Origin: Rhizophagus irregularis | Taxonomy: Eukaryota > Glomeromycota > Glomeromycetes > Glomerales > Glomeraceae | NCBI RefSeq assembly: GCF_026210795.1 | Contig: NC_089443.1 | Span: forward strand, 4,876,001-4,940,000 | DNA length: 64,000 nt | Direction of reading: 5' to 3' | In this document: in pieces, positions 1,240-52,692 of the stretch | How the letters are laid out: the number at the start of each line of letters is the position of its first letter | How positions within the stretch are numbered: position 1 is the stretch's first letter | Made by a program: the position numbers and the translations under genes | The notes under the pieces: generated by a model | Database searches by the model: none | Told to the model about the DNA's origin: nothing | The model's input: the letters and a program-made list of their open reading frames with translations, nothing else

Positions 1240-2300
1240 TTGTAAGTAGGTTAGCGGGAAGTGAGGGATGAATTTTTTTTAATATATAGAAGAAACGTAC
1301 TAATGTTTCTTCTATTTTCTTTTTTTTTTTAGGTTGCCGACGAACCTTGAAATATATAATATTTACATATAATTTAAAATAACTATTTTTAATTATATAA
1401 TTTATGTAAGTTTAGTGAAATAATAAAGTGACTACAATAAAATAAACATACAATAAAACAATACAACATTATAAATTATAATAATAAAAAAATAATAAAA
1501 ACCGAAATCTTATTTCAACCCTTGTAATCTGTTTTGACCCTCATAATTCGTAATTAATTATGACTCAAAATTTATTTATAAGATTGTTAAAAATCGGCAA
1601 GTCGATTGTTGTTATTAATAAAAATTGATCAAAAAAAAATATTGGTCGATTTATAGTTTTTTTTTATGTTACAACTCAACCAAAAATCAACCAAAAATCA
1701 ACCAGCTGATTTATGCTAAATTTTTTTTCGATTTTTATAATTTGCTGAATGTTTGACGAATCACGTGATGACGATGACGAACTTTTGATGAAAGGTATTA
1801 ATGCCGAAAGAAATGATTTCGACTAGTGGCTACAAGCAACACCAAGTTTCATTCTACAATGAAATTTAAGGAATTTAAGTTTCAAAGTATTTTTAATACT
1901 TCCAAGTTAAGTTAATAGTTTCCACTGGAACTTTCCTTGATGTAATGTTCAGTATTTACTCTTTTGATAGGTTTAGGTTCGGCTTTGTGTTCTATAATGT
2001 TTTGGAAGTTTAATTAACTTTTGCATATGTATTTTTCATACAATGAAAGGCATGCCACCTTTAGAAATCATACAATTTTTGGTGCTTGGCAATAAAGTCC
2101 ACATGTATGGACTTTGGGTTTTATTTGGATAAAATTCAAAATTATAAGTTTCATTGATTTGTCACAAGTATAAATAGGAGGAACGCGAACATGGACATCC
2201 AGTAGTTCGCAGAAGTTGGCCGAACGACGTCGCTTGTTCAAATTCTGTTTTTTCTTTGCATTTTTTTATTCAAAAAATTTTACAAATCGCCTAATCTAAC
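1240..2300. other. AT-rich stretch without recognised gene
   Basis: No convincing ORF, exon chain or inverted repeat was found. It contains polypyrimidine tracts (around 1315-1335) and two nearby copies of CAAAAATCAACCA (around 1680-1700). Confidence 0.5.
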
Positions 2301-2305
2301 ATTGA

Positions 2306-2331
2306 CCCTAACCCTAACCCTAACTCTAACA
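2306..2331. repeat. Short interstitial telomere-like repeat (CCCTAA)3
   Basis: Three CCCTAA-type hexamers followed by a variant (ACTCTAAC), about 25 bp in total. TTAGGG is the usual fungal telomere repeat. The tract is too short and internal to be a telomere; it may be an end-capture scar or part of the neighbouring iterated block. Confidence 0.6.
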
Positions 2332-2337
2332 AATTGG

Positions 2338-3205
2338 ATAACCCAATAAATTAACCTGAAATATTCAGGTCAGGTCATCAAATTCATGACCTAATACGGA
2401 TCAGATATATATTTAGGTCAAATAAATTAAAAAATCACAAAACTAATAATGATTCCGGCATTTTTTTATGTAAAATCAAAAAAAATGCCGTAACTATCAG
2501 TTTTAGTGTTTTTATATGTAAAATCATAAAAAAAAATGCCAGAACGTATGATTCTGGCAGTTTTACATGTAAAATCAAAAAAGAAAAATGCTGGAACAAT
2601 AATTCTGGCATTTTTACATGTAAAATCAAAAGGAAAAATGCCAAAACTAATTATTCTGGCATTTTTACATATAAAATCAAAAGTAAAAACGCCAAAAAAA
2701 ATAGTTTCAGCGTTTTATATATAAAAACAAAAAGTAAAAAATGTTATAAAATGTTTTTTTATAATATTTAATAATAAAACTTCAGGTAATCCAAGTTACC
2801 CGAAATGATCCAAATACTTTCAGGTCAAATGAAAGTAGATCGTCTGAACAGGAATCGTAAAACTATATATAAAGGTCACCAGAAAAAAATCAGAAAATCA
2901 TATATATGCGAACCATCTTATGATTGGTCAATTGGCTATTTATTCACATGTTTTCGCTTCAAAAACAGAAAAAGGAAAGATCTTCACTCAAATTTTCTTA
3001 TTCTTGCGAACCAACACGTGACTTTTATTAATTATTTTTACGGTGACCTTTTTGAAAATTAAATATGGGTTCAAACCAAGAAAACCGGTGACCTTTATTA
3101 GTAGTTTTCCCGGTCCTGTCAGAACAGTTTACCTGACCTGACCTGAAAAAAAATTTCAGGTCAGGTTAACCAGGTAACCTGATCCGACCTGACCTATGCG
3201 GAGCT
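2338..3205. repeat. Iterated AGGTCAGGT/ACCTGACCT block, probable mobile-element remnant
   Basis: Both flanks of this roughly 870-bp segment carry the same words in opposite orientation: ATTCAGGTCAGGTCAT near 2355-2375 and GACCTGACCTGAAA, CAGGTCAGGTTAACC and CCGACCTGACCTATG near 3125-3197. The right end reads GCGGAGCTCTA. No intact matching left terminus or TSD is visible, so boundaries are approximate. The interior holds a separate tandem repeat (2445-2725). Confidence 0.55.
2445..2725. repeat. About 58-bp tandem repeat containing inverted TTCTGGCATTTTTAC motif
   Basis: Five diverged units of about 55-60 bp carrying ATTCTGGCATTTTTACATG, then TAAAATCAAAA and AAAATGCC. Each unit is partly self-complementary (GGCATTTTT against AAAAATGCC). 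Open frames in this stretch come from the repeat and are not considered genes. Confidence 0.8.
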
Positions 3206-4338: not shown

Positions 4339-4973
4339 TTAAATACAATGCATAAAACTATTTTTTAAAAAAACTATTATGAAACATAATTTTTGTATCA
4401 ATCAAAATGATCGTAATCAGTGTTATCATATGTCAATTTAATGATTATCATTTGGGGTTACATCCCAAAAATTGGGGTTAAGATTAAGATCTGCATATAT
4501 GCATTTCTGGTGTCTTTATTTTGATGCAACATATTTGGATATATATGGAGTTGGTCAAGTTACTCAAGTGATATGATCATCACTATTCTATTTTTTAACT
4601 AATTTAATGTAAATTCCAAATTTCCTATAAAATTAAATTTCAAACTAAAAAATGCATAATTTTTTATAATGTATTTATTTCATATTACACTTTACAATTA
4701 AAAAATTTTTATTAACCAGATTATTGGCATTAAAAATACTTAATTATTATACAATTGTGCAATCAGTTTTTAATATTTTATCTAAAAACAAATATATATT
4801 GATAATTTTATGAAATTTAATAAGATATGATAATATAATATTATACAAGTTTTATGAATATTGAATAATATTATTTAAAATTATGGGTGGTTCCGATGGT
4901 ATATAAATATAAATATCAGTAAGTTTTTAAAGTTTGTGTAAATTTGTATAGTTTAAAATTTAAAATAGTAAGT
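4339..4973. other. AT-rich stretch, nothing recognised
   Basis: No exon chain or repeat family was identified. The only notable local feature is a GGGGTTACATCCC / TTGGGGTT pair around 4455-4490. Confidence 0.4.
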
Positions 4974-5190
4974 TAAGGATATTTCAGAACTCTGCTTATT
5001 TATAAGATAGGTCATCTCTAGACTTAAAAATCATATATAAAATTCTTTACAGATCCTACTATTAAAAGAAATTTTATGTTACATTGTTGATTATTTTCCT
5101 TTTAACTAATTAACTAATAGAATTTAAGAAAAAAGTAAGGTAAAAATTATTAGTAAAAGACCAATTTTTTATAATAACCTTTATTATATT
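4974..5190 (+). repeat. Diverged copy of the AGGACC MITE seen at 21720-21944
   Basis: Extended similarity to 21720-21944: shared phrases include CTGCTTA(T/C)TTATAAGATA, ATATAAAATTCTTT, TTTTATGTTACATTGTT, TAATAGAATTTAAG and TAATAACCTTTATTATA. The terminal AGGACC is degraded (AGAACTC). Non-coding. Confidence 0.7.
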
Positions 5191-6109
5191 TTTGCAAAAA
5201 CTCAAAATTTTTTAAGATATCATTAAACTACTGTCTATGAATTTTAAAAGTAATGTGATGGTCAAATTTTCTTAATATATCATCCTAGAATGAAATAATA
5301 TTTGGATGATATTGATATGGTCATGTAACGTTAATTTGCATGACATTTTAACTATACTGGACAGGTATTTTTTACAATATTGTGAAATTATTAAGAAGAC
5401 ATCTTTTTAGCATGTTCATGGTATTTTAAATACATTTTTTATAATATATAATTATTTTTTAAAAGATAAATACTTTTGCGTTGCTTATTGTTATACAATC
5501 AGAAAAAAATAATTTTTTGCAAATTATTTATTAATAAATATTAATATAATGCAGCTTTTAATTACAAATACATTTTTATTGCATAAAAAATTTTTTTAAA
5601 GCAAAATAAATCATAGAGCCAGATTCATAGCAACTTTTGCTAAAACTCGACTATAACACTTTTAGTATGTGACTATCATGTGATTATAGGGCCAATTGCT
5701 AGTGGAATTATAAACTTCATAACTACATTCAATTAAGGTAATATATTACTAGACCTATACTAAAGATGACTTTAGCAAGGCTTTCTTTATAAATTAAAAG
5801 AAATTTCATACATTTTTCCAGCTGGTGGGATAGCTTATGACCTCTAACCTCAAGTCTATTTACACTAATAAATCCAGAATATTTGCATTGTTAATAAAAA
5901 GTATAGTTAAGGTACTTTTAAGAATCCCTAAAAAGAAAAAATAAAATAAATGAGCAATTAAACATTCAGTCAAATAAAAATAAAAAAAATAAATACTTTC
6001 ATTTTTGTTTATAATCATATGATATCAATTGAGATTGATTTGCATGACAGTTCACACCTCTAACTCATATAAATGATCCCAGAAAAATCACAGCCAAATA
6101 AATATAAGG
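5191..6109. other. AT-rich stretch, nothing recognised
   Basis: No supported coding exon or clear repeat was seen on either strand. Confidence 0.4.
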
Positions 6110-6117
6110 GATACGAT

Positions 6118-6930
6118 TAGGGTTCTGATCGGTTTCGGTAATTACCGAACCGAACCGATCGGTTTTCGGTTTTCGGTCGGTAATTGCATCAAAAATTACC
6201 GACCTAACACTTCAGTAATTTACCGATCGGTTTGGTAATTTCGGTTTTCGGTATCGGTTTTATCATTTATCGAACCGATTTACCGATCTGACTTTATATT
6301 TTGTGATTGGCAAACTGATAATCTTTTTTAGTCCATATATATATAGTTTTTTTTTAATTTTTCTTTTTTTTACAGCAAATTTCAAAATATACGGGACACT
6401 TGAGAAATTTGATTGTCAGGTTGTCGGGTAGCTGGGTTACTCGGCAGTAGGTTGTTTATTAGAAAAGTATAAATAACACGTGACGAGTATAATGAATAGT
6501 AGTATATCAGATTATATAATAACCTACTGCCGAGTAACCCGGCTACCCGACAACCCGACAATCAAATTTCTCAAGTGTCCCGTATATTTTGAAATTTGCT
6601 GTAAATAGTAACGCGTTTATTATTAATTGATAACAATCATACAATAGATTACAATTTTATATAAACACCTAGCGTATACTAAATCCAAGGATCTCAATCT
6701 TAAATTTGTTTATTGATAGGATTTATTTTTTATATAGGTTTTGTAATAAATACATCGAGGAGTAGTAAATTCGGTAAATCGGTATCGGTAATCGGTAATT
6801 ACCGGCCGGTTTCGGTTATACAGTTTACCGATATCGAAAATTCGGTAAATTATCGATTACCGATACCGAAATTCGGTTTCGGTTTCGGTATGACTCAAAC
6901 TGAAACTGAACCGTACCGATCGGAACCCTA
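6118..6930. mobile_element. 813-bp fold-back element with iterated CGGTAATTACCG words and 8-bp TSD
   Basis: The termini are inverted: TAGGGTTCTGATCGG at the left and CCGATCGGAACCCTA at the right. The element is flanked by a perfect 8-bp direct repeat GATACGAT (6110-6117 and 6931-6938). Both ends are dense in TCGGT, GATCGG and CGGTAATTACCG words. The interior has been invaded by a second MITE (6373-6601). There is no transposase. An 8-bp TSD points to hAT-type or, allowing one mismatch at 9 bp, MULE-type insertion. Confidence 0.85.
6373..6601. mobile_element. Nested 229-bp MITE, TIR CAGCAAATTTC, TA target
   Basis: Nearly perfect inverted arms of about 80 bp run from CAGCAAATTTCAAAATATAC to the mirror GAAATTTGCTG. 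Both ends are flanked by TA (6371-6372 and 6602-6603). The arms contain CGGGACACTTGAGAAATTTG and GGTTGTCGGGTA. TA targeting suggests a Tc1/mariner-type non-autonomous element. It is inserted inside the element at 6118-6930; a related copy lies at 13652-13867. Confidence 0.9.
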
Positions 6931-14115: not shown

Positions 14116-17100
14116 ATGAGTTTCAAATGCCCCCTTTGTATGCGAATATTCAGTCAACGCTTTGCATATACTCAACACGCCCAAAAATGCTTAAAAAATG
14201 TAGAAGTAGAAGTAGAAGATGATGATGATAATAATGATAGTGAAAAATATAGCAGTGAAATGGATACAAGAAGTAATCTAAGTAGTGAATATGAAAATGA
14301 TAAAGTTGAGGTAATTATGTTATTCCAGATTATTCTTTTTAAAGAAAAAGCTCAATAATTATGTTATTCCAGATTATTCTTTTTAAAGAAAAAGCTCAAA
14401 TTATACTAACTCATTTTGGTTTATAATTTTAGGTGGATGATGATAATAATGTACAAAATATGTCATTTGACAGTATTGGAAGTGCAATATCGAGAGATGA
14501 GCCTTGAAGATAGTAACTTTGAAAATATATTAGATTCATCTGAAGAGCCTGAAATTTTTGAAGAACCCAAAAATCTCAATACCAAAACTTGCACAGAATT
14601 TCCTAATGATGCTTATAAAGATCTAATGTTATTAGTAACGAAATATAAAATAAACAATAAAGGTGGTAATGAAATAATACGTTTTTTTAATAAACATTCA
14701 AATCTTACAGAATCACCATTACCAAAAAATATTGAACAGGGACGAGCATTTATGAATAATATGCAGTTTTCTAATTTAGAATTTAGTAAAGTTCTTATAA
14801 CAAAACATAAGGATAAAGATTATTTTCTTTATTATCAAAACTTAATACAGTGCATCAAAAATATCTTAACTGTTCCTGACATAACACAAAATTTTGCGCT
14901 ATCTTACGAAAACTATGAGGTAAATAGTAAATATTAGTTAATTCAATAATTTAAATAATATTTATTTTAATTTATTTATATTATTTTATAGTATAATAGA
15001 GAAAGTATTTACAGTGAACAAAACACTGGAAAATGGTGGAAAACTACGCAAGAATCCTTACCTACTGGTTCCAAATTATTATCAATTATTTTATATTCTG
15101 ATGCAACAACTACAGATACATTAGGAAAAAGTCAATTGCATCATATATATATTTCATTAGGCAATATCCCAATATGGCGTCGTAATAAACAGGATGCAAA
15201 GCAACTTTTGGGATATTTACCAATTTTAGAAGCTGCAAATAAAGATCTGGTTCGTGATACCTTTCATAAATCTTTACGTCATTTACTAGAACCAATTATT
15301 TTATTAAAAGATGGTATAGACCTTTTTATAAATAATGAAAATACCTGGTTTTATCCTAGAGTTTCAACTATTATTGCAGATTGGCCAGAAGCCGCAAGTT
15401 TTTGTTTAGTTTATAAATCCTCCAATTCAAGCCTTCCATGTCACTCCTGTTTAATTAAAAGGGACAATCTTGCAAATATAAACTTATTGGTTAATGATGT
15501 AATACTAAGAACTCATGATGAAATGCGTAAATATTTTGAAAATGATACACAAAAATCTGTTTGCATAGAATCTGTACCTAATTTTTTTTGGGATTTGCCG
15601 TAAGTATGCAAAAGTAGAAATAATTATAATAACATATATATATATTAATTATAAATATTTATATTATCAAGGAATATAAATATCTACTTGGCTACTGTTC
15701 CTGACAGAATGCATCATTTAGATTTGAGTTTATTTCGTTATCAAATTATCTTCACGTGTGATATCTTAAAATTGCAACATGTTAATGGTAATAAATTAGT
15801 TGAAGAAGTAGATCGCCGTCTAGCAGCAATTCCACGTTTTCCTGCCATTAAAATTTTTTCCAATGGACTGCAGTCAATTGCAAGATTAACTGCTAATGAA
15901 TATCGAAGTTTGATGAAAGTCATGATATTTGTTATTGATAATTTATATGATGAAAATAATAACGAAGTAGATAATTTTGTAAATAATGATGATCTTGTGA
16001 AATTGTACGAATATTGGAATGAAATGTATATTTTAAGTAGATATGAAGAATTTAGTGAAAGTGACTTGGAGAAATTTAATGTATGTATTAAAATTTTAGT
16101 AAAATCGAAAATTTAAATTAAATAAATTAAATTAACATTTAAATTTTAGGATACAATACATAGATGGGCGCGGATGTTTGTCAAGGCTTTTAAATTTGTT
16201 TCTCCTTCCAATTTGAAGTTGCCTAAATTGCATTCATGGGTTTATCACATTATTGACTCAATACGATCTTATGGCACAATAAATGGCTATACCACAGAAA
16301 CTTACGAAAGTCTCCACAAATATTTCGTTAAAATACCCTACCGAATTAGCAATAAAAAAGATGTCGAACCTCAGCTTTTACGAACTGTAAGTATTTGGAA
16401 ATTTATTTATTGTATATATTTATTATATAACTTAAGATGGAAATTAAATTAATAGATAAAACGTCAAGCAATATCTATTAGAATGTCTCAACATTCAGTG
16501 AATCCGGCAAAAACACCTTGCACTTGTAAATTTTCTGCAAGACTCTTTGATTTCTCTTTACAAGATGCAAATACATTTTTTAATGAAAAAAAGATTCCGT
16601 AGACAATAAAATGCAGACCGGTTTTGCTAGATTTATAAGTTGTCTGGATTCATATCTAGATTTACTTGATGGGTTCACAATTATTGGTGAAACCCGAATA
16701 AACATATACGGATCGGTAACACTGGAAAATGGTGCCATAATGCGTGCCACAAACAGGTATCATAATAAAGTATGGTTTAGCGACATAGCTATTTCAATGG
16801 ATTCTGAAGAATCAAATGATTATATATCAGACAAAGGACTTTGTTATGGACAGGTATTTTTCCAATTTATGTAATAATTTATTATAAAGTATTAATAAAT
16901 ATTTATTATTTATAGGCCTTATTGTTAGCAGAAGTATTAACAGACCCACCGCTAAATCTCGCATTAATTCAATGGTACGATTTTAAATCTAAAAGGAACC
17001 CATATTTATATGGATGTCCTCACTTAAAATTGATAGAATTATATAACTTTATAGCTATAGAGTCTATACATGGTGTCGTTCACATAGTACCCCGATTTGA

Positions 17101-20690: not shown

Positions 20691-21567
20691 TGCAACAGGG
20701 ATTATAATGGATTTTTAATTTATATAGAAGGTACATATTAAAATTCTTGAATTTATTTCAGATTCTAATAAAATTTTTTTTGCAAATATATTTTATTAAT
20801 ATTTATTAGTTTGCAAGATTTAAAGTACGATTATTATGTGAGTTTTTAAATCTGCCAGTCATTTATATTAAAAAATTACGTAAAATGCATTAAATTAAAA
20901 GTTACTACTTGTAAAAATCGGTCAATAATAATTCAATTTGAATAAAACTTTGTATGATTAAAATTTAAAGTGCAATAAATTTATTTGCAATATTTGAGGT
21001 CATATTAATATGTAGAATTTTATGCAATGTCTTGTAACGGCATTTTATATCATGTGATAAAATTGGGAAATGATCGGCAAATTAATGTGATAAATGAGAA
21101 AGCCCGCTATGCAGTGCTGTATTTAATATAATATTTATAACAGCTCTAAATTTAAAAAAAAAAATTAAAAAGAATTTTTTTATAATTTTTTTTTAAAAAA
21201 ATGCTAGATTCATATTCAGAATATATGTTTTTATGGAGTTTAATCTATTTTTAAACTTTTAAAATTAGTATTTAATTTGTGATTCATGTAAAAATAAGAA
21301 GTAAATCACTAATTAAATTTGAAAAAAATAAAAAAAACTTGTTTTTGCAATTATCTTATGATCTAGTAATTCAATTTCAATGAACATTTTTTTATTGTAT
21401 AGCTCTTCAAATTCTCTACGTAATAAAAAAATGATTGTTGAAATTGGATTGATAGATTGTGAGATAATTGCAAAAAATGATTTTTTCTAAAGGATTGCTG
21501 CATTTATCTAATATATTCTGAAAAAAATCATTTTTGTAATATCAGAAAACTGGGTATAATTTACATA
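20691..21567. other. AT-rich stretch with a long imperfect hairpin
   Basis: About 21335-21485 forms an imperfect hairpin: TTTTTGCAATTATCTTATGA ... AGATTGTGAGATAATTGCAA. It contains AATTCAATTTCAATGAACAT like the hAT-type MITEs at 38709 and 61115. No gene is recognised. Confidence 0.5.
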
Positions 21568-21984
21568 TAGTTAAACCTTTATATAACGATATGTCAAGAT
21601 ATATATGAAATTTTTAGAAAATATTGTTATATCAAATATATACCAATATTTATATGTCCTCACATATAGTAGAAAAATAAAATTTTATTGGTATATTAAA
21701 TTTTTAATAGTATATTAGTAGGACCCTGCTTACTTATAAGATAAGTCACCCCCAGACCTAAGGTAAAAATGATATATAAAATTCTTTGCAAATCTTACTA
21801 TAAACGGAAATTTTATGTTACATTGTTATGATTTTTTCCTTTTTAGCTAATTAACCAATAGAATTTAAGAAAAAAGTAAGGTAAAAACTATTAGTAAAGG
21901 GCCAATTTTCTATAGTGACCTTTATTATAAGTAAGCGAGGTCCTATATCAGTATATCGAATATTGGTATATTGAAGTTAGATTG
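21568..21984. mobile_element. CAGT-like/TA MITE (TAGTTAAACC... ends) carrying a nested MITE
   Basis: The left end TAGTTAAACCTTTATATAAC pairs loosely with the right end, which reversed reads CAATCTAACTTCAATATACC. TA sits at both borders. The interior repeats ATATTGGTATAT words. It is split by the AGGACC MITE at 21720-21944. It resembles pogo/Tigger-type termini (compare 33127-33298), but the ends are degraded. Confidence 0.5.
21720..21944 (+). mobile_element. 225-bp AGGACC MITE with 8-bp TSD, nested
   Basis: The ends AGGACCCTGCTTACTTATAA and (reversed) AGGACCTCGCTTACTTATAA are inverted repeats. Flanks are ATATTAGT (21712-21719) and ATATCAGT (21945-21952), an 8-bp TSD with one mismatch, as expected for hAT-type insertion. 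Related copy at 4974-5190. Non-coding. Confidence 0.8.
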
Positions 21985-22078
21985 TAATTGTAAAAATAAA
22001 GTTTTTGGTGAAAAAAAATTGAAAGTTATAATAATAATTTGTATTCAAATATAATAAATAATAGGCAATTTCTATTTG

Positions 22079-22315
22079 TACACGGGGTGTTTAAACACGG
22101 GTCATATTAGTAGATTAAAAACGGCATTCAAAACCTCCTTTAATACCTTAAGTAAACTTGCAGAGCAGGTGAAAATACGTATATTTATCTGTAATATAAT
22201 AAGAATAAAAAGTAAAAGAGTATAATGTTGGTAGCATTCAATTTCAAATTAAAAAACAAAAAATTAGTCTATTAAAAATTATATTTATATGACCCGTGTA
22301 CAAACACCCCGTATA
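22079..22315. mobile_element. 237-bp MITE with ACGGGGTGTTT ends and TA borders
   Basis: The left end TACACGGGGTGTTTAAACAC then GGGTCATAT pairs with the right end, which reversed reads TATACGGGGTGTTTGTACAC then GGGTCATAT. The TIR is about 30 bp. Termini abut TA, suggesting a Tc1/mariner-like non-autonomous element. No coding capacity. Confidence 0.8.
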
Positions 22316-22730
22316 AACTTAGAAATTTTCTAAATAATATGCAGTCAAATAATATAATTATGTGATTATCATAGGCAATAATAATTAGCAATTTTTATTT
22401 AAATTTAAAAGTTAATTACAAACTGATTTTATTATATAAAATGTTTTACAAATACTCTATAATCAGTGTTGAATAAAAAAAAGCTATTTATAAAAAAATA
22501 AAATATTTGTTTAATTACAAACTAATTAAATTAATTTCATTAAATTTACAAATATCTCATAATCAGTGTTAAACAAAAAACTATCAATAAAAAAAAATTA
22601 TAGTTTTATAATGATTCTTTTCTTTTAATTAATTATTTTCATTTTAAACTATAAACTATAAAATAAATTTAATAATTAAATATTTTTTAATTAAAATAAA
22701 TAAATAAATAAATAAATAAACATAATTAAC

Positions 22731-25700
22731 TTACTTTGTGAAGTCAATAACTTCCATTGAATAAAGATTTTTTGTAAATGGATTAAGTAATCGAGATGTA
22801 TAATAAGCTTCTGAATGAGTAGTTGATTGATTATTTTTAATAGATAAAAGATTTGCTTTTCTATATTCTTCTGCTTTTTCAAATTGCTTTTCAATTTCCT
22901 CATCTTTAATATATCTAAAAGAATTAATCGATTTTACTAAATCAATAGTATTTGGTCTATTATTTGGATTTGAATCCCAACATTTTTTCATTATATCAAT
23001 ATAAATTTTTGGTATTTCTGATTCATTTATTTCAGGTCTAACTCCATTACATATATTTAATACTAAAAATTCATCATGTGCACAATTGGCAAAAGGTTGT
23101 TTTCCAGTTGCTATATAATACATAATCATACCGAAACTGTATATATCTGCTGCTTGAGTATAAGGTTTACCTTTTAATACTTCAGGAGCTACATAAGGTA
23201 TAACTCCATAAATTTTGCTTTCATCTTTTATATTACTAACTTCTCCACATAATCCCATATCTGAAATATATATTTCACCAGATGTTTCATGTTCAACTAA
23301 TAAATTTCCTACATGAAAATCACGATGAACCATTTGTTTTTGATGAATATTTTTAAGTCCTATAATAATATTCAATATTAAATCTAATTTAAATGTCCAA
23401 TTAAATTTATCATAATTTTTATTTAACTGGTAATATAAACTTCCTCCACTTGCATAACCTAGAACTATAATATAATCTTTTGTATCTGGATTTTGAGATA
23501 ATCCATATATTCGAATAATATTTTCATTATAATTAAGAGAATATGCTCTAATCTATTAAAATATGTAAAAATTATTATTTATATAAAATAAAATTTAATT
23601 ATATGTATATATATATATAATTTCTTACCTCATTTAAAAATTCATCAATAATATTTTGTGATGAATTGAGCAAACATTTTAAAGCAACTTTTATATTACC
23701 ACGTATTCTTCTAAATTTTTCTTTGTAAAATAATGGACCATCCTTCCATATTGCTGAATAAACTATAGCAAATCCACCCTTACCTATTTCTTCAATCTTA
23801 TTAAACTGATTGTATGATATCCACTCAAATATTGTATCAGATTTATTATTAATTTTTAATTGCATTTCTTGAATAAGTTCATCAATTTTTTTATTTCCAC
23901 TGGTACAATTTATAGGATTTTTTCTTAAATAATCTAATTGACATGATATACACAAAGTATCATGCAAAATTTTACTACATTTTTCACAATATATATTTTC
24001 AATAACCATAATATAATTTTTTGTATCTGGATTTTGAGATATTCCATATATTATTTTATTATTACTATATTCATTAGCCTATTAAAAAAAAAATTTTTAT
24101 TAGAAAATAAAATAAAATAAATTTATAAAAGAACTGAATTTTATACCTCATTAAAAAATTCATCAGCATTATCTTGCAAATTGTAAAATTTTAAAGCAAT
24201 TTTTTGATTCTTATTTTTTAAATTTCTTTGATATATTTTTTTATATTTATCATAATTTAACTGACCATTTTTCCATATTGCTGAATATATTGTAATATAA
24301 TCATCTTTGTTTATTTTTTTAATATTATTAAACTGTTCATATGGTATCCATTCAACTATTATATTATTAAAATTATCAATTTTTAATTGCATTTCTTGAA
24401 TAAATTTATCAATTTTTTCATTTTTGCTGGTCCAATTTGTAAAATTTTTCTTCAAGTTGCTTATTTGACATGTTTTACACCATTTAAGATATGTAACTGT
24501 ATATTCCTTACCACAATTTTCACAATATTTCTCTTGAATAACTATAATGTAATTTTTTGTATTTGGATTTTGTGATACCCCATATATTTTATTACTGTAT
24601 TTCTAATAAAATAAAATAAAAATATTACTAAAATAATTAAAATAAAATAAATTAATAAAAAAAAATTTTATACCTTATTAAAAAATTCATCAGTAATATT
24701 TTGTGAATTAAATGATTTTAAAGTAACTATTTCATTCTGATTTTTTAAATTTCTTTTATATATTCTTTTATTTCCATCATAATTCAACTGACCATTTTTC
24801 CATATTGCTGAATATATTGTAAATAAATCATTTTTACCTATTTCTTTAATATTATTAAACTGTTCATATAATATCCACTCAACTATTATATTGTCATAAT
24901 CATCAATCTCTAATTGCATCTTTTGAATAAATTTATCAATTTTTTCATTTCCACTTGTCCAATTTGTAAAATTTTTCTTTAAATAATTTATTTCACATGG
25001 TTTACACCATTTTTCTACTATATCTGTATATTGCTCACCACATTTTTCACAATATTCATCTTTAAGAATCATTATATAATCTTTTGTATCTGAATTTTGA
25101 GATAATCCATATATATTATCAATCCTATCTAGCATTGAATATTCATTATCCTATTAAAAATAAAAAAAAAACATTATTAAAAAATAATAATATAAAGGAA
25201 ATTTATAAAGAAACTTTCTTACCTCACTTAAAAATTCAGTAATATCTTGTGTATTATAACATATTAAAGTAACTTTTTTATTTTGATTTATAAAATCTCT
25301 CTTATATATTTTTTTATTTATATCATAATTTAATGGACTACTTTTCCATACTGCTGTATATATTGTAATAATACCATTTTTGCCTATTTCTTTAATATTA
25401 TCAAACTGGTCATATGGTATCCATTCGATTATTATATCATTGTAATCATTAATTTTTAATTGAAATTCTTGAATAAAATTATCAACTTTTTCATTTCCAC
25501 TAGTCCAATTTATAAAATTTTTCTTTAAATAATCTATTTGACATGATTTACACCATTTTTTACGCTGATAATACATTAAATTCATATATTCTTCACCACA
25601 TTTTTCACAATATTCATCTTGGATAACTATTATATAATCTCTTGTATCTGGATTTTGTGATATTCCATATATTGGAAGAGTATTACTATTACGTCCCTTT

Positions 25701-26709
25701 ATTTGAAAATTAATTAGTATAAAAAATAATATAAAAAAATATTTATATTAATATTTCATACCTTGTTTAATAATTCGTTGGTAATATTTTGTGAATTATG
25801 CATATATTTTAAAGCAACTTGTTTTTTCCCTAACTTTCTTTTATATTTTTTTTTATAAAGACAATAATATAAAGGACCGTCCTTCCATATTGTTGAATAT
25901 ATTGTAATAAAACCATCTTTTCTTATCTCTTTAATATTATCAAATTGGTCATATGGTATCCATTCAATTATTATATCATTGAAATCATAAATTTTTAATT
26001 GGAATTCTTGAATAAAATTATCAACTATTTCATTTCCACTAGTCCAATTTGTAAAATTTTTCTCTAAATAATTTATTTGACATGATTCACACCATTTGTA
26101 CTTCACATCTGTATATTTTTTACCACATTTTTCACAATGATCATCTTGAAAAACCATAAAATATTCTTTTGTATTTGGATTTTGAGATATTCCATATATT
26201 GGAAAATTATATAAACCAAAATATGATTTAACCTATTATAAATAATAAAAAAAATCATTACAATGAAATATAAAAATATATATATATATTAAAATTTTGG
26301 ATTAAATATAGTCATTTCATACCTTATCATAAAATTCATTGGTAATAATTGACAAATCATACAAACAACTGAAAATAATTACTTTTTCATTCTCAGATTT
26401 CCTTACATATTCCTTTTTGTGATGACAATAGTATAATGGACCATCTTTCCATATTGCCAAATATAAAACATTGTTTATTTCTTTAATATCATTCAATTGA
26501 TTGTATGGTATCCATTCAAATATTATATCATTTGGTTCACGAATATTTTGATTTTTTTCTTGAATTAAATTATCAATGATTTCATTTCCGCTTGTCCAAT
26601 TTGTAAGATTTTTTTTAAAATTATCTATTTGACATGGTTTACACCATCTATCTTCTACAAATGTGTATCTGTCGCCACATTTTTCACAATCTATATCAAT
26701 TTGCGACAT
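22731..26709 (-). CDS. Protein kinase with six tandem zinc-ribbon/N-lobe exons (phase-0 exon array)
   Basis: Seven exons: 26709-26323, 26232-25762, 25696-25223, 25150-24674, 24602-24147, 24078-23629 and 23552-22731. Every exon length is a multiple of three and all introns are phase 0 with GT-AG borders, giving about 1178 aa. Exons 1-6 each carry a zinc-ribbon-like CEKCG...WCKPC motif, TNWTSGNE, EWIPYxQFxNIKEI, an AIWKDGPL strand and SQNITxEF. Exons 2-6 also start with an IYGISQNPDTK(D)YIMV fragment. Only exon 6 keeps a good glycine loop (IGKGGFAIVYSAIW) and VALK lysine. Exon 7 supplies the rest of the catalytic domain: VHRDFHVGN, SDMG, APE, DIYSFGMIMYYIATGKQPF. The stop TAA overlaps a GTAAGT, so a further 3' exon is possible. 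Glomeromycete kinase expansions are known; the five extra N-lobes are degenerate and probably non-catalytic. Alternatives are mutually exclusive splicing or a partial pseudogene. Confidence 0.8.
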
Positions 26710-26713
26710 TTTT

Positions 26714-28530
26714 ATTATTATTCAAAAAAAAAAAGCGAAGACGATGAAACGGCTGAAACGCACGTCAATTTACACTACATATTTATTTAGTTTGACAGTG
26801 ACCATGCCGATCGTACTGTATTAATCTGATCAACATATAATCACGTGAAAGTAGTGACACGCAAACTGATCAATGACGAGAACTATTTTTCTATAATTTT
26901 TATTCCATATAGAGATGATGATCAACATTAAAGAATCGAAAATTTAATTAATAATCTTGAAATATTTACTATGCAATTTTAAATTGGGTAAATTTAAATC
27001 AAAAGAAATTTATTTATATTTTTATCTTATGTTATTTATTGAATTTTGTAACGAAAAATATATTTTTTGAATTGAGACTATAATAATCATATCTTCAATA
27101 TTACCTTTGCATTAATCTTACTAATCGCGCAAAAAAATAAGAACAAATAAAGTGTAAAAATTATGCTTAAATAGTAGATAGCAACAAATCAATTCCTATT
27201 ATAAAAATATTAACAAATTTTTTTTAAAAAAAGTAATCTAATATTCTGAAATTATAAATCAAATAATTTATATTAAACGAGACCTGTGCTGTTATTAAAG
27301 CTCTGCATGAGCCAAGCTGCTCATGAGCTGTATTAATACTATTACTACAGTAGTACTTTCTTCTTTTGACTACTATACACCGATCTAAGAAGTTTTAGAA
27401 CTATTATTATTGGAATCATATTTAGATGGATTAAGAGGAGGACTTTGTGAAATTACGATATCAGCTATTGATAAGTTTATTTTGGCAAATAAAGAATTCA
27501 GATAAATTAAATCATACAGATTTAAATGTTATTTTTTTTTTTAGGATCGTAAAATCTTGTTTAAAAATTTAACAAGTAATCTTTTAAAAAAATAGGCTAA
27601 ATATTTAAAAAATATTGCGAGAAGTTTTTTCGAAATGTTTTATTATTATTGAGGGATCGAAATTTTTGCGGATTGAATTTCCTTAAAATAACAGAATAAC
27701 TCTTTTTTCATAATCTGGTAATTGATTATTCTTCTAACGTATACTGTATAAGCTCTTATAATTTTACGTGATTCAAAGGAATAATGGAATTACAAGTCAA
27801 CGCCAATATCAATTAACAAAAGACATGAATTAAGTGAATAGAAATCATCTTCGAAACGTAATAAGACTTATTTAATTAAGGCCGGCTGGGTCGATTTTTG
27901 TTAGGTCTTAAAAAATTTTTTATATTATCTAAAAATTACACATTATGAAAATTATAAAATTAAATTTGTATAAATAATTTTTATTTACTGTACATATACG
28001 AAAACCTAAAAAATGCATTGATTCTATACAATTACTTCATTATATAAAATCGTTTTTTTGATCAAGTCGATCCACTTTGCGAAATATTATTACGTTTACA
28101 ATATACGCATAAAATTTAATCAAACTCCGCTTATTTACAGAAATACTGTATCTCATTACACTTGTACGCTATTATAAATGAATTTTTAATTTTCTTAATT
28201 TATAGTTAAATTTTAAGAAAATTTCACGTGATTACATATTATGAAAGTTTTTTTCGACTTTTCGACTTGCAAAAAGAAAGCAGCCAGCTGATTATTATCT
28301 TAGTCATGTAAGAAATGTAAGATAAGCTATTCATTCTATCTATCAAAATAATATGTCATTCGAATGCGTTTTTTGTTATTATACTTCAAATTCCATCTGC
28401 ATTTTTTAATAATAAACTGCCTTACTCAAATAGTAGACGATAAATGTGATAATGAAATTGTACCGTACTACTCGCGTGACTAGCACAAAGCGCACAATGG
28501 AAACACTATCTTATTTCCTAACGGTACACA
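26714..28530. other. Intergenic stretch upstream of the kinase; no gene recognised
   Basis: Contains the presumed kinase promoter, with an AATCACGTGAAAG word at about 26840. No exon chain was found. A small GGCCGGCTGGGTCGA / CAAGTCGATCCA pair (about 27880 and 28065) may mark a decayed inverted-repeat element. Confidence 0.4.
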
Positions 28531-48875: not shown

Positions 48876-51800
48876 TTACTCTCTTATACTTGGACATTTC
48901 TTTTGATAATGTCCCGGTTTTTTGCATAACAAACATTTTCGTTGCGACTTTGATGTTCCTCCACTATCATCAGTCTCTTGTACATTAACATGATTTGAAG
49001 TTTCATGCATTACCTTTTTTCTTCCCATCACTTCAATACTACTCTTCATTCTTTTTTTACAAGGAGCTCCCCGAATTTTAGTAACATAAGGATCTGCTGT
49101 TATATCAATTAGTTGTTGTTGTAAAGGAAGTATATTATTTTGATTTTCGTCATGTTCAATATTTTCTACTTCCATATTATTTTCTAAATCAACTGCATTT
49201 CGACTTCTTTGTTTAGTTGAAATAAAATCTCTTAACAATTTTACTAATTCGTTATCACATCCAGTTTCTAATGCAATATTAATTGCAGTCTTTGCAGTTG
49301 AAAATGCTACTCCAAATTTATTTCTTTTAGGAATACAGTCAACTCTCTTTATAGTCACACATTTGGGACAGTCCATATTTGGTGATTATAAAGAGATGTG
49401 ACTATATAAAAAATTTCTTATATTTGTATATCATAATTCCGGCCAAAAATTAACATAATTTTAGCCAGAATTATACTTAAAACTTTATTGTATCGTAACT
49501 TCGCCAATATTAATCGTAGAGAGATGATCTTACCGCCATTCGATTCGTCTTGATGAGACGGTTCTAATGGTATAAAATACGTCGAAATCCAATCACTAGA
49601 TTAATTTCCGAAATTAAAAAAATATTAATAGTTTTTGTGTAATAACTCTGCCAATATTGATCCTAGAGAGACGATCTTACTACCATTCGATTCGTCTTGA
49701 TGAGACGAATCTAATGGTATAAGATACATCGAAATCCAATCACTAGATCAATTTCCGAAATTAAAAAATATTAAATGGTTTTTAAGTAATAACTCCGCCA
49801 ATATTGATCACAGAGAGATGAGCTTACCACCATTCGATTCGTCTCGATGAGGCGATTCCAACGAGCTATAAATCGTCTTTTTACAATCACTAGGTACCGA
49901 GAAATCTAGCAAAATGTTAAATGGCGCAGTAAACGTAAATCAAGAAATATTATAATGCCGATGTTTAACATTTTGTTGAATAACTCGTCAGCCAGTGGTT
50001 GGAAAAGGATAAACTACCACCATTCGATTCGTCTCAGTGAGACGATTCTAACAAGCTATGATACATCTTTGTACGATTATTAGATGCCAAGTTATTTAAT
50101 ATATTCTTTATATAACTGTGATTATAAACGGTTCTTTTTAATATAAGATTTTTGAGGATAGGTGTGATAGTGACTATAGATAGATAGTGACTATATAGGA
50201 TAGATTTTAATAATAAAGTGTTTTGAACATTCAACTGGTGTGACTATATAGTAGAATGTGACTATAACGGGAGTGACTATAGAGGGAGTTGACTGTAATT
50301 TGTTGAATAATTTCATTATTATAAGATCCTTGAAAATGCTTTTTCAAACTTTGAAGAGCAAAATCTACTGTATGTAGCATTGCTGTATCAGATGATTCTA
50401 CTGCTGTAAGAACAGGTGAATTTTCAAGTATACTACTACTTAATTTCGTTAAAATATCATCTTTGTACCATCTAATAGGAATAATACTAATATGAAATTT
50501 TGCTGTATTAGAATAAAGCATAACTCTCCAAAAATGGCGGCAAATTATTCCTTTTGTAATTGTTTCCAAACAAGTACAAATATGTGATCCATCATTAAAA
50601 AGAACTACTAAATTTTCTTTTTGAAAAATACCTCCTACTCGACGAATTTTCCAAGTTTCAACAACATTTGATATATCCATATCATTTAATATAGATTTTA
50701 ACATTACTTGTGGTTCATCTACTATATCTTCTACGAAATTATCATCTGGAGTATTAGAAGGTGAGTTCTGTAATGAAAAATAATGTTTTTTATTTATAAA
50801 TGTCAATTAATATCAATAGTTTTATTTTTTAAGAAATAATACATACATCAAATGAACAAGATATTAATTGCCCTTCATAAGTAAATGATTGTGAAATTTG
50901 AAAACGTTGTAAAGATAATATAAGAGGAGTTAAAAATTCAACAATAACTGTATCAACATCTGAAAAAAATTGAGAAGAAAGATGTGGAAGTCCAACTGTT
51001 GTATACTTTGCTTTAAGATCTGTTAATTGACAATATCTAATTTCTTCTTCATATCTCTTATTTATAGCTTCTTCCACCTCACAAAGTGTACTTGTACTAT
51101 TTAAAGACCTTTTAATAATATTATTAAACGATTCTACACTTTGGGTACTTTGTATACCACCATTAAACTGGAATGGCATATATGCTTTAGCCCAACTAAT
51201 TCTATTATTATATAATGTTCTAGTCATATAACGTTTACAGTTTGGAAATGATTTTATCATAAATTTCCAACGTTGTTCAAAAATCTCTATACATAATGCA
51301 TTTCTACATGCATAGAAAGCTTTACTAAAATTACTAAAGTTTTCGCCTAATTTGGATTTAAGATGCTTTATAATATTCTGCCATATATGAAACATACAAT
51401 AAAAATGTGGTGTATTTGGAAAAACTTGAGCAACAGCATTAATTAATCCAGGTTCAGAATCAGTCCAAAATGATTTTGGAATTATATTGTCAGTTGCTTT
51501 TACCAAACATTGTAAAATCCAAGTGTATGTTGAAGAAAGTTCATCTTCTATTAAAGCATTTGCCACATTGCGAAATCTTCCATAGTTATCTTTTATCATA
51601 AATACACTTAAGTACATATTATACTTGTTAGTTTTACAAGTATTGTCATTTAATACTATATCAGAAAATCGCCTATACAATTCTAGTTGACTAGGAGACA
51701 TCCAAAATATACCTGATAGGCGATTTTCACTACCAGTATGACGAACAAAAACTTTCCAACGTGGGTCTTGAGTCATTTTTTCAAATAAGATATCAAGAAA

Positions 51801-52692
51801 TAATAAAGAGTCAGGTCTTTCATTTTTATTATTCTGGCATAAATTATAAATAGCATTATAAACGTCTTGTTTATGAAATACATGTTCTGGATACTTTCTT
51901 TTAAGAATTTCTAGTTGTATAATAGGTGCAACTTTGCAATCCAAAAAAAATTTCAAGTCTTTTATCATTTCGTTATCAAAACGTCTATATCTAGCAATGA
52001 TATGAGGTAATTGGGTAGGGTTTACTTCATGATTATGTATATCTTTTAATGATGTACATTTTACTTGATTTGCCGTTTTTGGAAATGAGAATTGCAGTGC
52101 CACTCACAATTTGTCTTTATAGTACCACGTAAACGATGCAATTTCTGATCTATTACTTTTCTGGATTCATATTTTCCATTTGAAGAACAACGAAATGATT
52201 TACGTCGTATAATAGTAAAATCATTTGGATCTTTATCATTTCGATAAACTTGATATCCAAACCTCTTTCTAAACAATATTGATGCATAAATGTATCAACT
52301 GATTGCCAATCATCAAAATAATCTCCTACAGTAAGATTATACTGATAAATCTGTTCAGATAATGATTCAAAATGTTCTTCAAAAGGTAGTTCAAAAGGAG
52401 TTTCACAAGAAGGTTCAGAAGAAAGTTCAGAAGAAGGTTCAGGAGATAACTCTAAAGAAGGCTCAGAAAGTAACTCTAAAGAAGGGTTAATAGATGGTTT
52501 AGAAGGTGTTTCAAGAGAAAAACTATCTATGTTTGTAAAATTATGATTAAAATCTGGTTCAACAACTGGTAAAAAATTTATAGCAAAATTATCATTAAAT
52601 GGTGATAATAAAAAGTCTAAAGTTTCAGAATATGGCGAAAAAAATGCATTTGTCTTATATATATCTTTATTATAATCATTAGAATCCTCCAT
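48876..52692 (-). pseudogene. FAR1/MULE transposase with SWIM finger and zinc knuckle, interrupted
   Basis: Start MEDSNDYNKD at 52692. A Ser/Glu/Pro-rich N-terminal repeat (LELLSEPSLELSPEPS) precedes a FAR1-type DNA-binding region: MHQYCLERG, shift, FGYQVYRNDKDPNDFT, TIKTNCEWHC, shift, FPKTANQVKCTSLKDIHNH. The MULE core in 52103-50847 has LNDNTCKTNKYNMYLSVFMI, FWTDSEPGLINAVAQVF, YCMFHIWQNIIKHLK and STQSVESFNNIIK. After intron 50846-50768 comes the SWIM finger (CTCLETITKGIICRHFWRVM) and LQSLKKHFQGSYNN. The reading frame is cut at about 50297 by the 960-bp element and resumes at 49335 (PKRNKFGVAFSTAKTAINIA), ending in a CCHC knuckle (CLLCKKPGHYQKKC). The two shifts each look like loss of one T from a T-run. 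Confidence 0.85.
49336..50295 (+). mobile_element. 960-bp CAGTCAACTC element, copy 1, TA target, inside the MULE transposase
   Basis: The ends CAGTCAACTCTCTTTATAGT and CTATAGAGGGAGTTGACTG are inverted and bordered by TA (49334-49335 and 50296-50297). The subterminal zones repeat TATAGTCAC. The centre carries four units of about 150 bp with ACCATTCGATTCGTCTTGAT then GAGACGAATC. Removing it with one TA rejoins the MULE frame (QQI then IPKRNKF). No transposase inside; the 66-aa frame at one end is shared by both copies but looks repeat-derived. It probably belongs to the pogo/Tc1 group. Confidence 0.92.

What the first reader, a model, noticed from the sequence alone, without database searches (positions are those of the whole stretch)
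22731..26709. Kinase gene with six tandem, all phase-0, zinc-ribbon/N-lobe exons
Six consecutive exons encode the same zinc-ribbon plus partial kinase N-lobe module, and exons 2-6 each begin with a piece of the alphaC-beta5 region before restarting at the zinc ribbon. All seven exons have lengths divisible by three and all introns are phase 0, so any exon can be skipped or exchanged without shifting frame. Only the sixth module keeps a good glycine loop and Lys. This could be a giant multi-pseudo-N-lobe kinase or a mutually exclusive exon cassette that swaps the sensory/ATP-binding half onto one catalytic domain.
Basis: partly seen in the sequence, partly recalled or inferred. Interest (0 to 1): 0.78.

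Follow-up and report, generated by a model that had tools for sequence, protein, structure and literature searches.

The report
Kinase genes with repeated dead N-lobes
A symbiotic fungus carries many kinase genes in which the ATP-binding half of the enzyme is repeated several times in a row, and as a rule only the last copy keeps its ATP-binding residues, so the others look like a string of dead, possibly binding, modules attached to one working kinase.

Summary
Minus-strand gene 26709-22731 has seven GT-AG, phase-0 exons giving an open 1178-aa frame. It is not unique: 24 of 25 loci fetched by module similarity and 11 of 11 loci drawn at random from related C-lobes have tandem N-lobe modules before a C-lobe. 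The piece that opens exons 2-6 completes the N-lobe begun in the previous exon: spliced units align end to end with three single-copy kinases of the same genome. The glycine loop (GxG) is kept in the last module (22/25; second set 11/13) and rarely elsewhere (4/99; 5/57). Of 53 columns conserved in last modules, the seven least kept elsewhere are all in the ATP pocket, while zinc cysteines stay at 96-99%. Three loci lack the intron between two modules. This favours one long protein, a chain of ATP-dead N-lobe repeats on one kinase, over exon swapping. No RNA and no other glomeromycete genome was examined; amino-acid constraint is weak. Ten searches listed no report of such arrays, but a likely relevant pseudokinase survey could not be read.

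The parts
26323..26709 (-). exon 1 (387 nt): ATG, zinc ribbon, N-lobe beta1-alphaC; Gly loop shortened, Lys lost; no beta4-beta5 piece
25762..26232 (-). exon 2 (471 nt): beta4-beta5 of unit 1, then zinc ribbon + beta1-alphaC of unit 2 (RKDGFI loop, VALK kept)
25223..25696 (-). exon 3 (474 nt): beta4-beta5 of unit 2, zinc ribbon + beta1-alphaC of unit 3 (GKNGII, VTLI)
24674..25150 (-). exon 4 (477 nt): beta4-beta5 of unit 3, zinc ribbon + beta1-alphaC of unit 4 (GKNDLF, VTLK)
24147..24602 (-). exon 5 (456 nt): beta4-beta5 of unit 4, zinc ribbon + beta1-alphaC of unit 5 (NKDDYI, IALK)
23629..24078 (-). exon 6 (450 nt): beta4-beta5 of unit 5, zinc ribbon + beta1-alphaC of unit 6, the terminal module with intact GKGGFA loop and VALK
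23767..23784 (-). glycine loop GKGGFA of the terminal module
   Evidence: read from the exon 6 translation
23677..23688 (-). VALK (beta3 lysine) of the terminal module
   Evidence: read from the exon 6 translation
22731..23552 (-). exon 7 (822 nt with stop): beta4-beta5 of unit 6 and the whole C-lobe (HRD, DMG, APE)
   Evidence: (Pfam PF07714, E 8.6e-36)
23319..23327 (-). HRD of the catalytic loop
   Evidence: read
23253..23261 (-). DMG (DFG position)
   Evidence: read

Best explanation
The gene is spliced constitutively into one 1178-aa protein: six head-to-tail units, each a CxxC/CxxC zinc ribbon, a linker and a complete kinase N-lobe, followed by one C-lobe. Because the intron lies between alphaC and beta4, each exon from the second on starts with the end of the previous unit. 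Only unit 6 keeps the nucleotide-binding glycine loop and pairs with the C-lobe as a kinase of TKL-like sequence. Units 1-5 are ATP-dead N-lobes that keep their zinc-ribbon and core positions and most likely act as a chain of protein-binding or regulatory repeats that positions or restrains the terminal kinase. The array is a shared architecture of a large gene group in this genome, probably formed by tandem duplication of the unit (breakpoints just before the zinc ribbon and just after beta5) and spread by duplication of whole genes. Shown from sequence: anatomy, recurrence, ATP-pocket-specific erosion, open frames, intron-less junctions in three loci. Inferred: constitutive splicing, zinc binding, fold, origin, and the binding/regulatory role.
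For: Exons, phases and open 1178-aa frame. Same order of parts in 24 of 25 other loci fetched by module similarity (the 25th, L024, had no C-lobe match inside the fetched piece), and tandem modules in 11 of 11 loci drawn at random from 80 C-lobes that had no listed module. Donor phase 0 in 130 of 140. GxG kept in terminal 22/25 vs non-terminal 4/99, 9 non-terminal modules not covered (Fisher 2e-17), and in a second set 11/13 vs 5/57, 2 not covered (1.3e-7); leaving out the five close relatives of the window gene and without merging split hits, 16/18 terminal, 6/65 internal, 0/18 first. Of 53 columns at least 85% conserved in terminal modules, the 7 least kept in the others are five Gly-loop positions, the beta2 Val and the VAIK Ala (0.12-0.51), against zinc Cys 0.96-0.99; VAIK Lys 0.88. 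A profile of 94 spliced units (beta1-alphaC of one exon plus beta4-beta5 of the next) aligns over nearly its whole length (3-158, 3-158, 4-159 of 160) with three single-copy kinases in uninterrupted frames. L028, L029 and L030 have module-module fusions without an intron. In two non-overlapping paralogue pairs, 11.2 and 14.9 stops were expected in exons 2-5 under a matched null, 0 seen. An in-frame ATG lies 6-75 nt before the first module match in 18 of 25.
Against: No transcript was examined, so constitutive splicing is inferred. Amino-acid constraint is weak: the non-synonymous share in exons 2-5 is only slightly below the null (null at or below observed in 17/500 and 66/500), and terminal exon 6 is indistinguishable from the null (279/500, 257/500). 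The zero-stop count is partly a matter of choice: exons were taken where a profile hit lay in an open frame, and L003 (truncated) and L007 (stops) of the five nearest relatives were left out. L017 runs the other way: its terminal module lacks the loop and module 2 has GRGGF. Terminal modules without GxG in the first set are L003, L016 (DKGGF) and L017. The structure model is too poor to show the fold (pLDDT 47.6). Against the PDB the internal units do not match kinases significantly (best kinase E 0.36, out of register); in Pfam 1 of 20 units matches PF07714 at E 0.0035, while 3 of 20 match BCS1_N (best E 1.8e-5), which I take to be unrelated. Their identity as N-lobes therefore rests on the within-family alignment. 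Seven of the 11 random C-lobe loci have modules without a matched zinc ribbon, and in six of these no module frame holds two CxxC (0 of 41), so the ribbon is not essential to the architecture. The acceptor count (102 of 105 at phase 0, 9 without a call) leans to phase 0 by its method, since an in-frame TAG is taken as acceptor; the donor count does not.
Confidence: 0.7

Rival explanations
1. Mutually exclusive cassette: exons 2-6 are alternatives, one at a time joined between exon 1 and exon 7, so that the sensory/ATP-binding half of the kinase is swapped.
For: All exons are 3n with phase-0 ends, so any choice keeps the frame; array sizes vary between genes.
Against: In the window only exon 6 has an intact loop and Lys, and across two sets the loop is kept mostly in the last module: most choices would give an N-lobe without a glycine loop. 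The beta4-beta5 pieces of internal exons would have no role. Two adjacent modules are fused without an intron in L028, L029 and L030 and cannot be spliced apart at that joint.
Confidence: 0.06
2. One long protein is made, but internal exons are skipped in a regulated way, so that isoforms carry different numbers of dead units.
For: Symmetrical phase-0 exons make skipping frame-neutral; nothing in the short introns (median 73 nt in 99 clean junctions) speaks against it.
Against: No RNA examined; phase-0 symmetry is also what tandem duplication of one exon gives for free; fused exons in three loci.
Confidence: 0.12
3. Neutral repeat growth: the extra units are tandem-duplication debris tolerated in a fast-turning-over gene family, with no function.
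For: Weak amino-acid constraint; nearest neighbour in the same gene for 50 of 104 modules, a sign of local duplication; two of the five closest relatives are truncated or carry stops (L003, L007).
Against: Zinc cysteines and many core residues kept at 0.9 or more while ATP-pocket residues are lost is not random decay; frames stay open over 4-7 modules in many loci; no stops where 11.2 and 14.9 were expected, with the reservation that open exons were chosen.
Confidence: 0.12

Closest known systems
Expanded protein (tyrosine/TKL-like) kinase genes of Rhizophagus irregularis (PF07714)
   Same: Same species and Pfam family; 2,533 members of the kinase repertoire counted in this assembly (PMC10234402, passages); PF07714 the commonest motif in rapidly expanded genes (PMC6123716, passages).
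   Different: The passages I saw count genes by domain; none describes tandem N-lobe units. Pfam gives no kinase match to units 1-5 of the window and one sub-threshold-looking match (E 0.0035) in 20 units.
Single-copy zinc-ribbon kinases of the same genome (L043, L044, L045)
   Same: Same zinc ribbon, linker, N-lobe and C-lobe in the same order, aligned nearly end to end.
   Different: One unit only, in one uninterrupted frame; after Sel1-like repeats in L043 and hydrophobic segments in L044 and L045 (my reading); loop GKGGFG in L044, DKGGFG in L043, GKGKFG in L045.
Pseudokinase-kinase proteins (JAK JH2-JH1, plant tandem kinase proteins such as Pm24)
   Same: A dead kinase-derived part stands beside a kinase in one chain (JAK recalled; Pm24 seen in a search listing with the start of its abstract).
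   Different: There the dead part is a whole two-lobed domain (recalled); here it is the N-lobe alone, repeated, with a zinc ribbon in part of the family.
Mutually exclusive exon arrays (Dscam type, recalled)
   Same: Tandem homologous exons of equal phase.
   Different: Non-terminal exons differ from the last one in the ATP-pocket residues, and some neighbours are fused.

Membership tests
eukaryotic protein kinase, TKL/TK-like (exons 6-7) | C-lobe profile match | tested here: met
   PF07714 E 8.6e-36, PF00069 E 3.7e-33; among the nearest solved structures Roco4, TAK1, B-Raf
eukaryotic protein kinase, TKL/TK-like (exons 6-7) | Gly loop, VAIK Lys, HRD, DFG, APE | tested here: met
   GKGGFA, VALK, HRD, DMG (Asp kept, Phe not), APE by reading the sequence
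pseudokinase (units 1-5) | loss of one or more nucleotide-binding or catalytic residues | tested here: met
   Gly loop lost in units 1-5 of the window; in the two sets GxG kept in 4/99 and 5/57 non-terminal modules
pseudokinase (units 1-5) | whole two-lobed kinase fold | tested here: not met
   no C-lobe match between modules in the window gene; they are half domains by sequence
tandem kinase proteins of plants | two or more complete kinase/pseudokinase domains | tested here: not met
   one C-lobe in the window gene; L032 is a different case, with a degenerate C-lobe in front of its array
mutually exclusive exon array | interchangeable exons of equal phase | tested here: inconclusive
   phase equal, but the modules are not equivalent in the ATP pocket
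mutually exclusive exon array | transcripts that contain exactly one variant exon | not testable with these tools
   no RNA data
zinc ribbon | two CxxC knuckles | tested here: met
   four Cys columns kept at 0.96-0.99 in covered non-terminal modules of the first set; only weak profile hits (eL37 E 0.009; NOB1 E 0.025)
zinc ribbon | binds zinc | not testable with these tools
   needs biochemistry

The most novel reading that the evidence does not exclude
The ATP-dead N-lobe chain is a recognition array: each unit imitates the ATP-binding half of the fungus's own kinases and catches regulators or foreign molecules that target kinases, and the terminal kinase reports the capture. Skipping of phase-0 exons, together with gene duplication, would give a large, fast-changing set of such sensors in a fungus with some 2,500 kinase genes.
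Probability: 0.12. Interest if true: 0.85.

Novelty: new variant of a known kind. Interest (0 to 1): 0.6.

Why it matters
The kinase expansion of arbuscular mycorrhizal fungi is reported but unexplained in the passages I saw, and is counted by Pfam domain. In the arrays studied here, most of the gene is a repeat whose tested units Pfam does not recognise convincingly as kinase: a kinase N-lobe reused as a repeating, ATP-dead unit. If made as protein, it would be an unusual case of half a kinase domain turned into a repeat array, and it gives part of the expansion a testable function (binding or regulation by the array).

Tried and rejected
Structure: AlphaFold2 on exon 4 with the six window modules gave pLDDT 47.6; I did not search folds with it and did not use the second job. 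PDB and Pfam searches of internal units gave no convincing kinase match, so I relied on alignment with single-copy relatives. Relatives outside this genome: none among 86 pattern matches in genome contigs or 77 in viral contigs; neither collection is meant to hold fungal genomes. L031 (C23) was dropped as an intron-less case because 19 extra codons at the junction look like an in-frame intron. Tree of modules, without L003-L007: terminal modules have a terminal module as nearest neighbour in another gene in 16 of 18, but after dropping the ATP columns in 10 of 18 (shuffle mean 3.0, maximum 13 in 1000 shuffles), so I do not claim one ancient array. The first count (GxG 19/22 terminal, 0/18 first, 7/81 internal) treated split hits as separate modules; one search merges them; both point the same way. 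Rows left out: L003 and L007 from the selection test; L024, L030 and L031 from the terminal-module counts (no C-lobe in the piece); one C-lobe place that was split in two was not entered, and held only part of the module places. One search failed on an error and was repeated. Literature: ten searches listed no title or abstract start on tandem N-lobe arrays (lists were capped, for instance 20 of 576); I saw passages of PMC8647823, PMC6123716 and PMC10234402, and listings for the rest. [quoted passage not shown] 2019, cited in PMC10234402) is not held, so I cannot say whether it touches these genes.
Full report
What is there. The window is G000:C15:4876001-4940000 of a 146.7-Mb genome in 32 contigs. 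Contig C13 is 5,085,394 bases long, exactly the scaffold N50 printed for the 32-chromosome Rhizophagus irregularis DAOM197198 assembly (PMC10234402, passages), so I take the genome to be that one. The gene lies on the minus strand, 26709-22731. Its seven exons are 387, 471, 474, 477, 456, 450 and 822 nt, with GT-AG introns of 65-90 nt, all phase 0, and give an open frame of 1178 aa. A repeat finder without any gene model found six copies of a 247-nt core at 527-552 nt spacing, 67-83% identical to the reference copy.

What the repeated unit is. Exon 1 begins with ATG and a zinc ribbon and ends after alphaC. Exons 2-6 begin with a stretch like IYGISQNPDTKDYIIVIQ, then a zinc ribbon, then beta1 to alphaC. 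Exon 7 begins with the same kind of stretch (IYGLSQNPDTKDYIIVL) and runs on into the C-lobe. In a kinase this stretch is beta4-beta5 and the hinge (assignment by alignment and general knowledge). So the stretch at the start of exon k+1 is the end of the N-lobe begun in exon k. To test this I joined beta1-alphaC of each exon with the opening stretch of the next for 94 clean junctions, built a profile and searched three kinases of the same genome that have this region in one uninterrupted frame (L043-L045). The profile aligned over positions 3-158, 3-158 and 4-159 of 160 (best-domain E 1.6e-36 to 2.5e-41 in a three-sequence search). The repeat is thus a complete zinc ribbon plus N-lobe, and the intron cuts each unit between alphaC and beta4.

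The architecture recurs in this genome. A search with exon 2 scored 150 of 4,537 first-look candidates; the 150 listed matches fall in 81 clusters. I fetched five clusters of the nearest relatives and 20 others from a random draw of 21 out of the remaining 75 (the twenty-first, on C7, was not fetched because a call takes 20 stretches). All 25 loci hold tandem modules, and 24 of 25 also a C-lobe match on the same strand within the piece. To avoid choosing by module I searched with exon 7. Of 140 C-lobe places entered (one split place was left out), 60 had a listed module within 6 kb upstream and 80 had none, judged on the part of the module lists that I entered. I drew 11 of the 80 at random, and 11 of 11 have tandem modules (2 to 8 counted in 3.6 kb, so lower bounds). 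Seven of these 11 (L032, L033, L034, L037, L039, L041, L042) have modules whose zinc-ribbon stretch is not matched; in six of the seven, 0 of 41 module frames hold two CxxC. Intact single-unit kinases also exist. Array sizes in the first set, window included, are 4 (10 genes), 5 (1), 6 (10) and 7 (4). Donors are phase 0 in 130 of 140; the ten others lie in L003, L007, L008, L014, L016 and L023. Acceptors are phase 0 in 102 of 105 with a call, 9 without, the three others in L011 and L018; the acceptor count leans to phase 0 by its method.

The last unit keeps the ATP site. In the window the loop reads, from unit 1 to 6, NN----VLYL, RKDGFITIYS, GKNGIITIYT, GKNDLFTIYS, NKDDYITIYS, GKGGFAIVYS. Over the first set, GxG is kept in 22 of 25 terminal and 4 of 99 non-terminal modules, 9 more not covered (Fisher 2e-17). 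In the second set (11 random C-lobe loci plus L028 and L029) it is kept in 11 of 13 and 5 of 57, 2 not covered (1.3e-7). Leaving out the five close relatives of the window gene, and without merging split hits, it is 16 of 18 terminal, 6 of 65 internal and 0 of 18 first modules. The loss is specific: of 53 columns at least 85% conserved in terminal modules of the first set, the seven least retained elsewhere are five glycine-loop positions, the beta2 valine and the VAIK alanine (0.12-0.51). The four zinc cysteines are at 0.96-0.99 and the VAIK lysine at 0.88. L017 is a clear exception (terminal NKSDF, module 2 GRGGF); the terminal loops of L016, L038 and L040 miss only the first Gly (DKGGF, DRGGF, DKGGF). 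Loci share ancestry, so these P-values overstate independence.

One protein or swapped exons. Symmetrical phase-0 exons would permit swapping, but swapping would in most cases place an N-lobe without a glycine loop on the catalytic half, and exon 1, which holds the first ATG, has lost loop and lysine. Intron-less junctions speak directly: a query across the module junction found uninterrupted frames at C5:3322378 (L028, penultimate and terminal unit), C13:353909 (L029) and C9:856909 (L030; first two visible units in both). L028 has a second fused junction in a short frame. L029 and L030 look alike, so these may be two events rather than three. A fourth place, L031, probably holds an in-frame intron and is not counted. 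An in-frame ATG lies 6-75 nt before the first module match in 18 of 25.

Selection. Position-matched exons of three relatives (L004, L005, L006) are open throughout; two others are truncated (L003) or broken by stops (L007). In two non-overlapping pairs, 11.2 and 14.9 stops were expected in exons 2-5 when the observed changes were scattered at random; none was seen, with the reservation that exons were taken from open frames. Amino-acid constraint is weak in every part: pN/pS 0.34-0.70 pooled over six pairs, and the non-synonymous share is barely below the null or not at all. The frames look protected while the sequences change fast.

Likely mechanism. Shown from sequence: the anatomy, the recurrence, the specific loss of the ATP pocket, the open frames, the intron-less junctions. 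Inferred: constitutive splicing into one chain; zinc binding; N-lobe fold of the internal units; a role of units 1-5 as binding or regulatory repeats for the terminal kinase. The terminal kinase has HRD, DMG and APE, and the solved structures nearest to its C-lobe are Roco4, a tyrosine kinase, TAK1 and B-Raf.

Comparison with what is known. Kinases are known to be hugely expanded in this fungus: 2,533 members counted in this assembly (PMC10234402, passages), PF07714 the commonest motif in rapidly expanded genes (PMC6123716, passages), tandem arrays of duplicate genes and Mutator-like elements near high-copy genes (PMC8647823, passages). None of the passages seen describes repeated N-lobes within one gene. 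Pfam gives units 1-5 of the window no kinase hit; among 20 units, 1 has PF07714 at E 0.0035 and 3 have BCS1_N (best E 1.8e-5), which I take to be unrelated. That may be why the units were not described. Ten searches of the open library listed no such report; the lists were capped, subscription papers are not covered, and one likely relevant survey is not held. I file it as a new variant of a known kind: a pseudokinase-kinase arrangement in which the dead part is half a domain, repeated.

Limits. No RNA was seen, no other glomeromycete genome could be searched, and the only structure model was poor. The interest rests on the family-wide pattern, not on this gene alone.

Noticed in passing
window 50829-52103 (-): Long open frame with a MULE transposase domain (PF10551 E 8.4e-21), about 24 kb from the kinase gene; Mutator-like elements near high-copy genes are reported for this species (PMC8647823, passages).
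   Followed up: partly
window 14992-15603 (+): Open frame matching the Plavaka transposase family (PF18759 E 1.5e-22).
   Followed up: no
L033, L034, L037, L039, L041, L042, and most of L032: A second subfamily of arrays without the zinc ribbon: 0 of 41 module frames in the first six loci hold two CxxC; period about 450 nt instead of about 540; 4 of the 7 loci lie on contig C16.
   Followed up: partly
L032 minus strand, 1550-2573 (reverse-strand offsets): A degenerate C-lobe (HRN for HRD, GLG for DFG) lies in one open frame with the first module of an N-lobe array that ends in an intact C-lobe: it looks like a dead kinase fused to the front of an array.
   Followed up: partly
L017 minus strand, 4873-6784 (reverse-strand offsets): A second C-lobe match follows the first after about 620 nt; whether it is a second gene or part of the same one was not worked out.
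   Followed up: no
L043:828-6086 (+): Uninterrupted frame of 1753 aa: a long run of Sel1-like repeats (my reading) followed by a zinc-ribbon kinase of the same family with a single N-lobe.
   Followed up: partly
L044, L045: Single-unit zinc-ribbon kinases preceded by several hydrophobic, possibly membrane-spanning segments; HHD (L044) or HHN (L045) in place of HRD.
   Followed up: no
L007 (C4:539862-547861) and L003 (C6:3822620-3830619): Decayed close relatives of the window gene: L007 has stops and an interrupted C-lobe, L003 has fewer modules and only part of the C-lobe exon.
   Followed up: partly
window 21500-22700 and 26750-28500: A+T-rich flanks of the kinase without an open frame of 190 aa or more (smaller frames); no tRNA or Rfam match in the whole window.
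   Followed up: no
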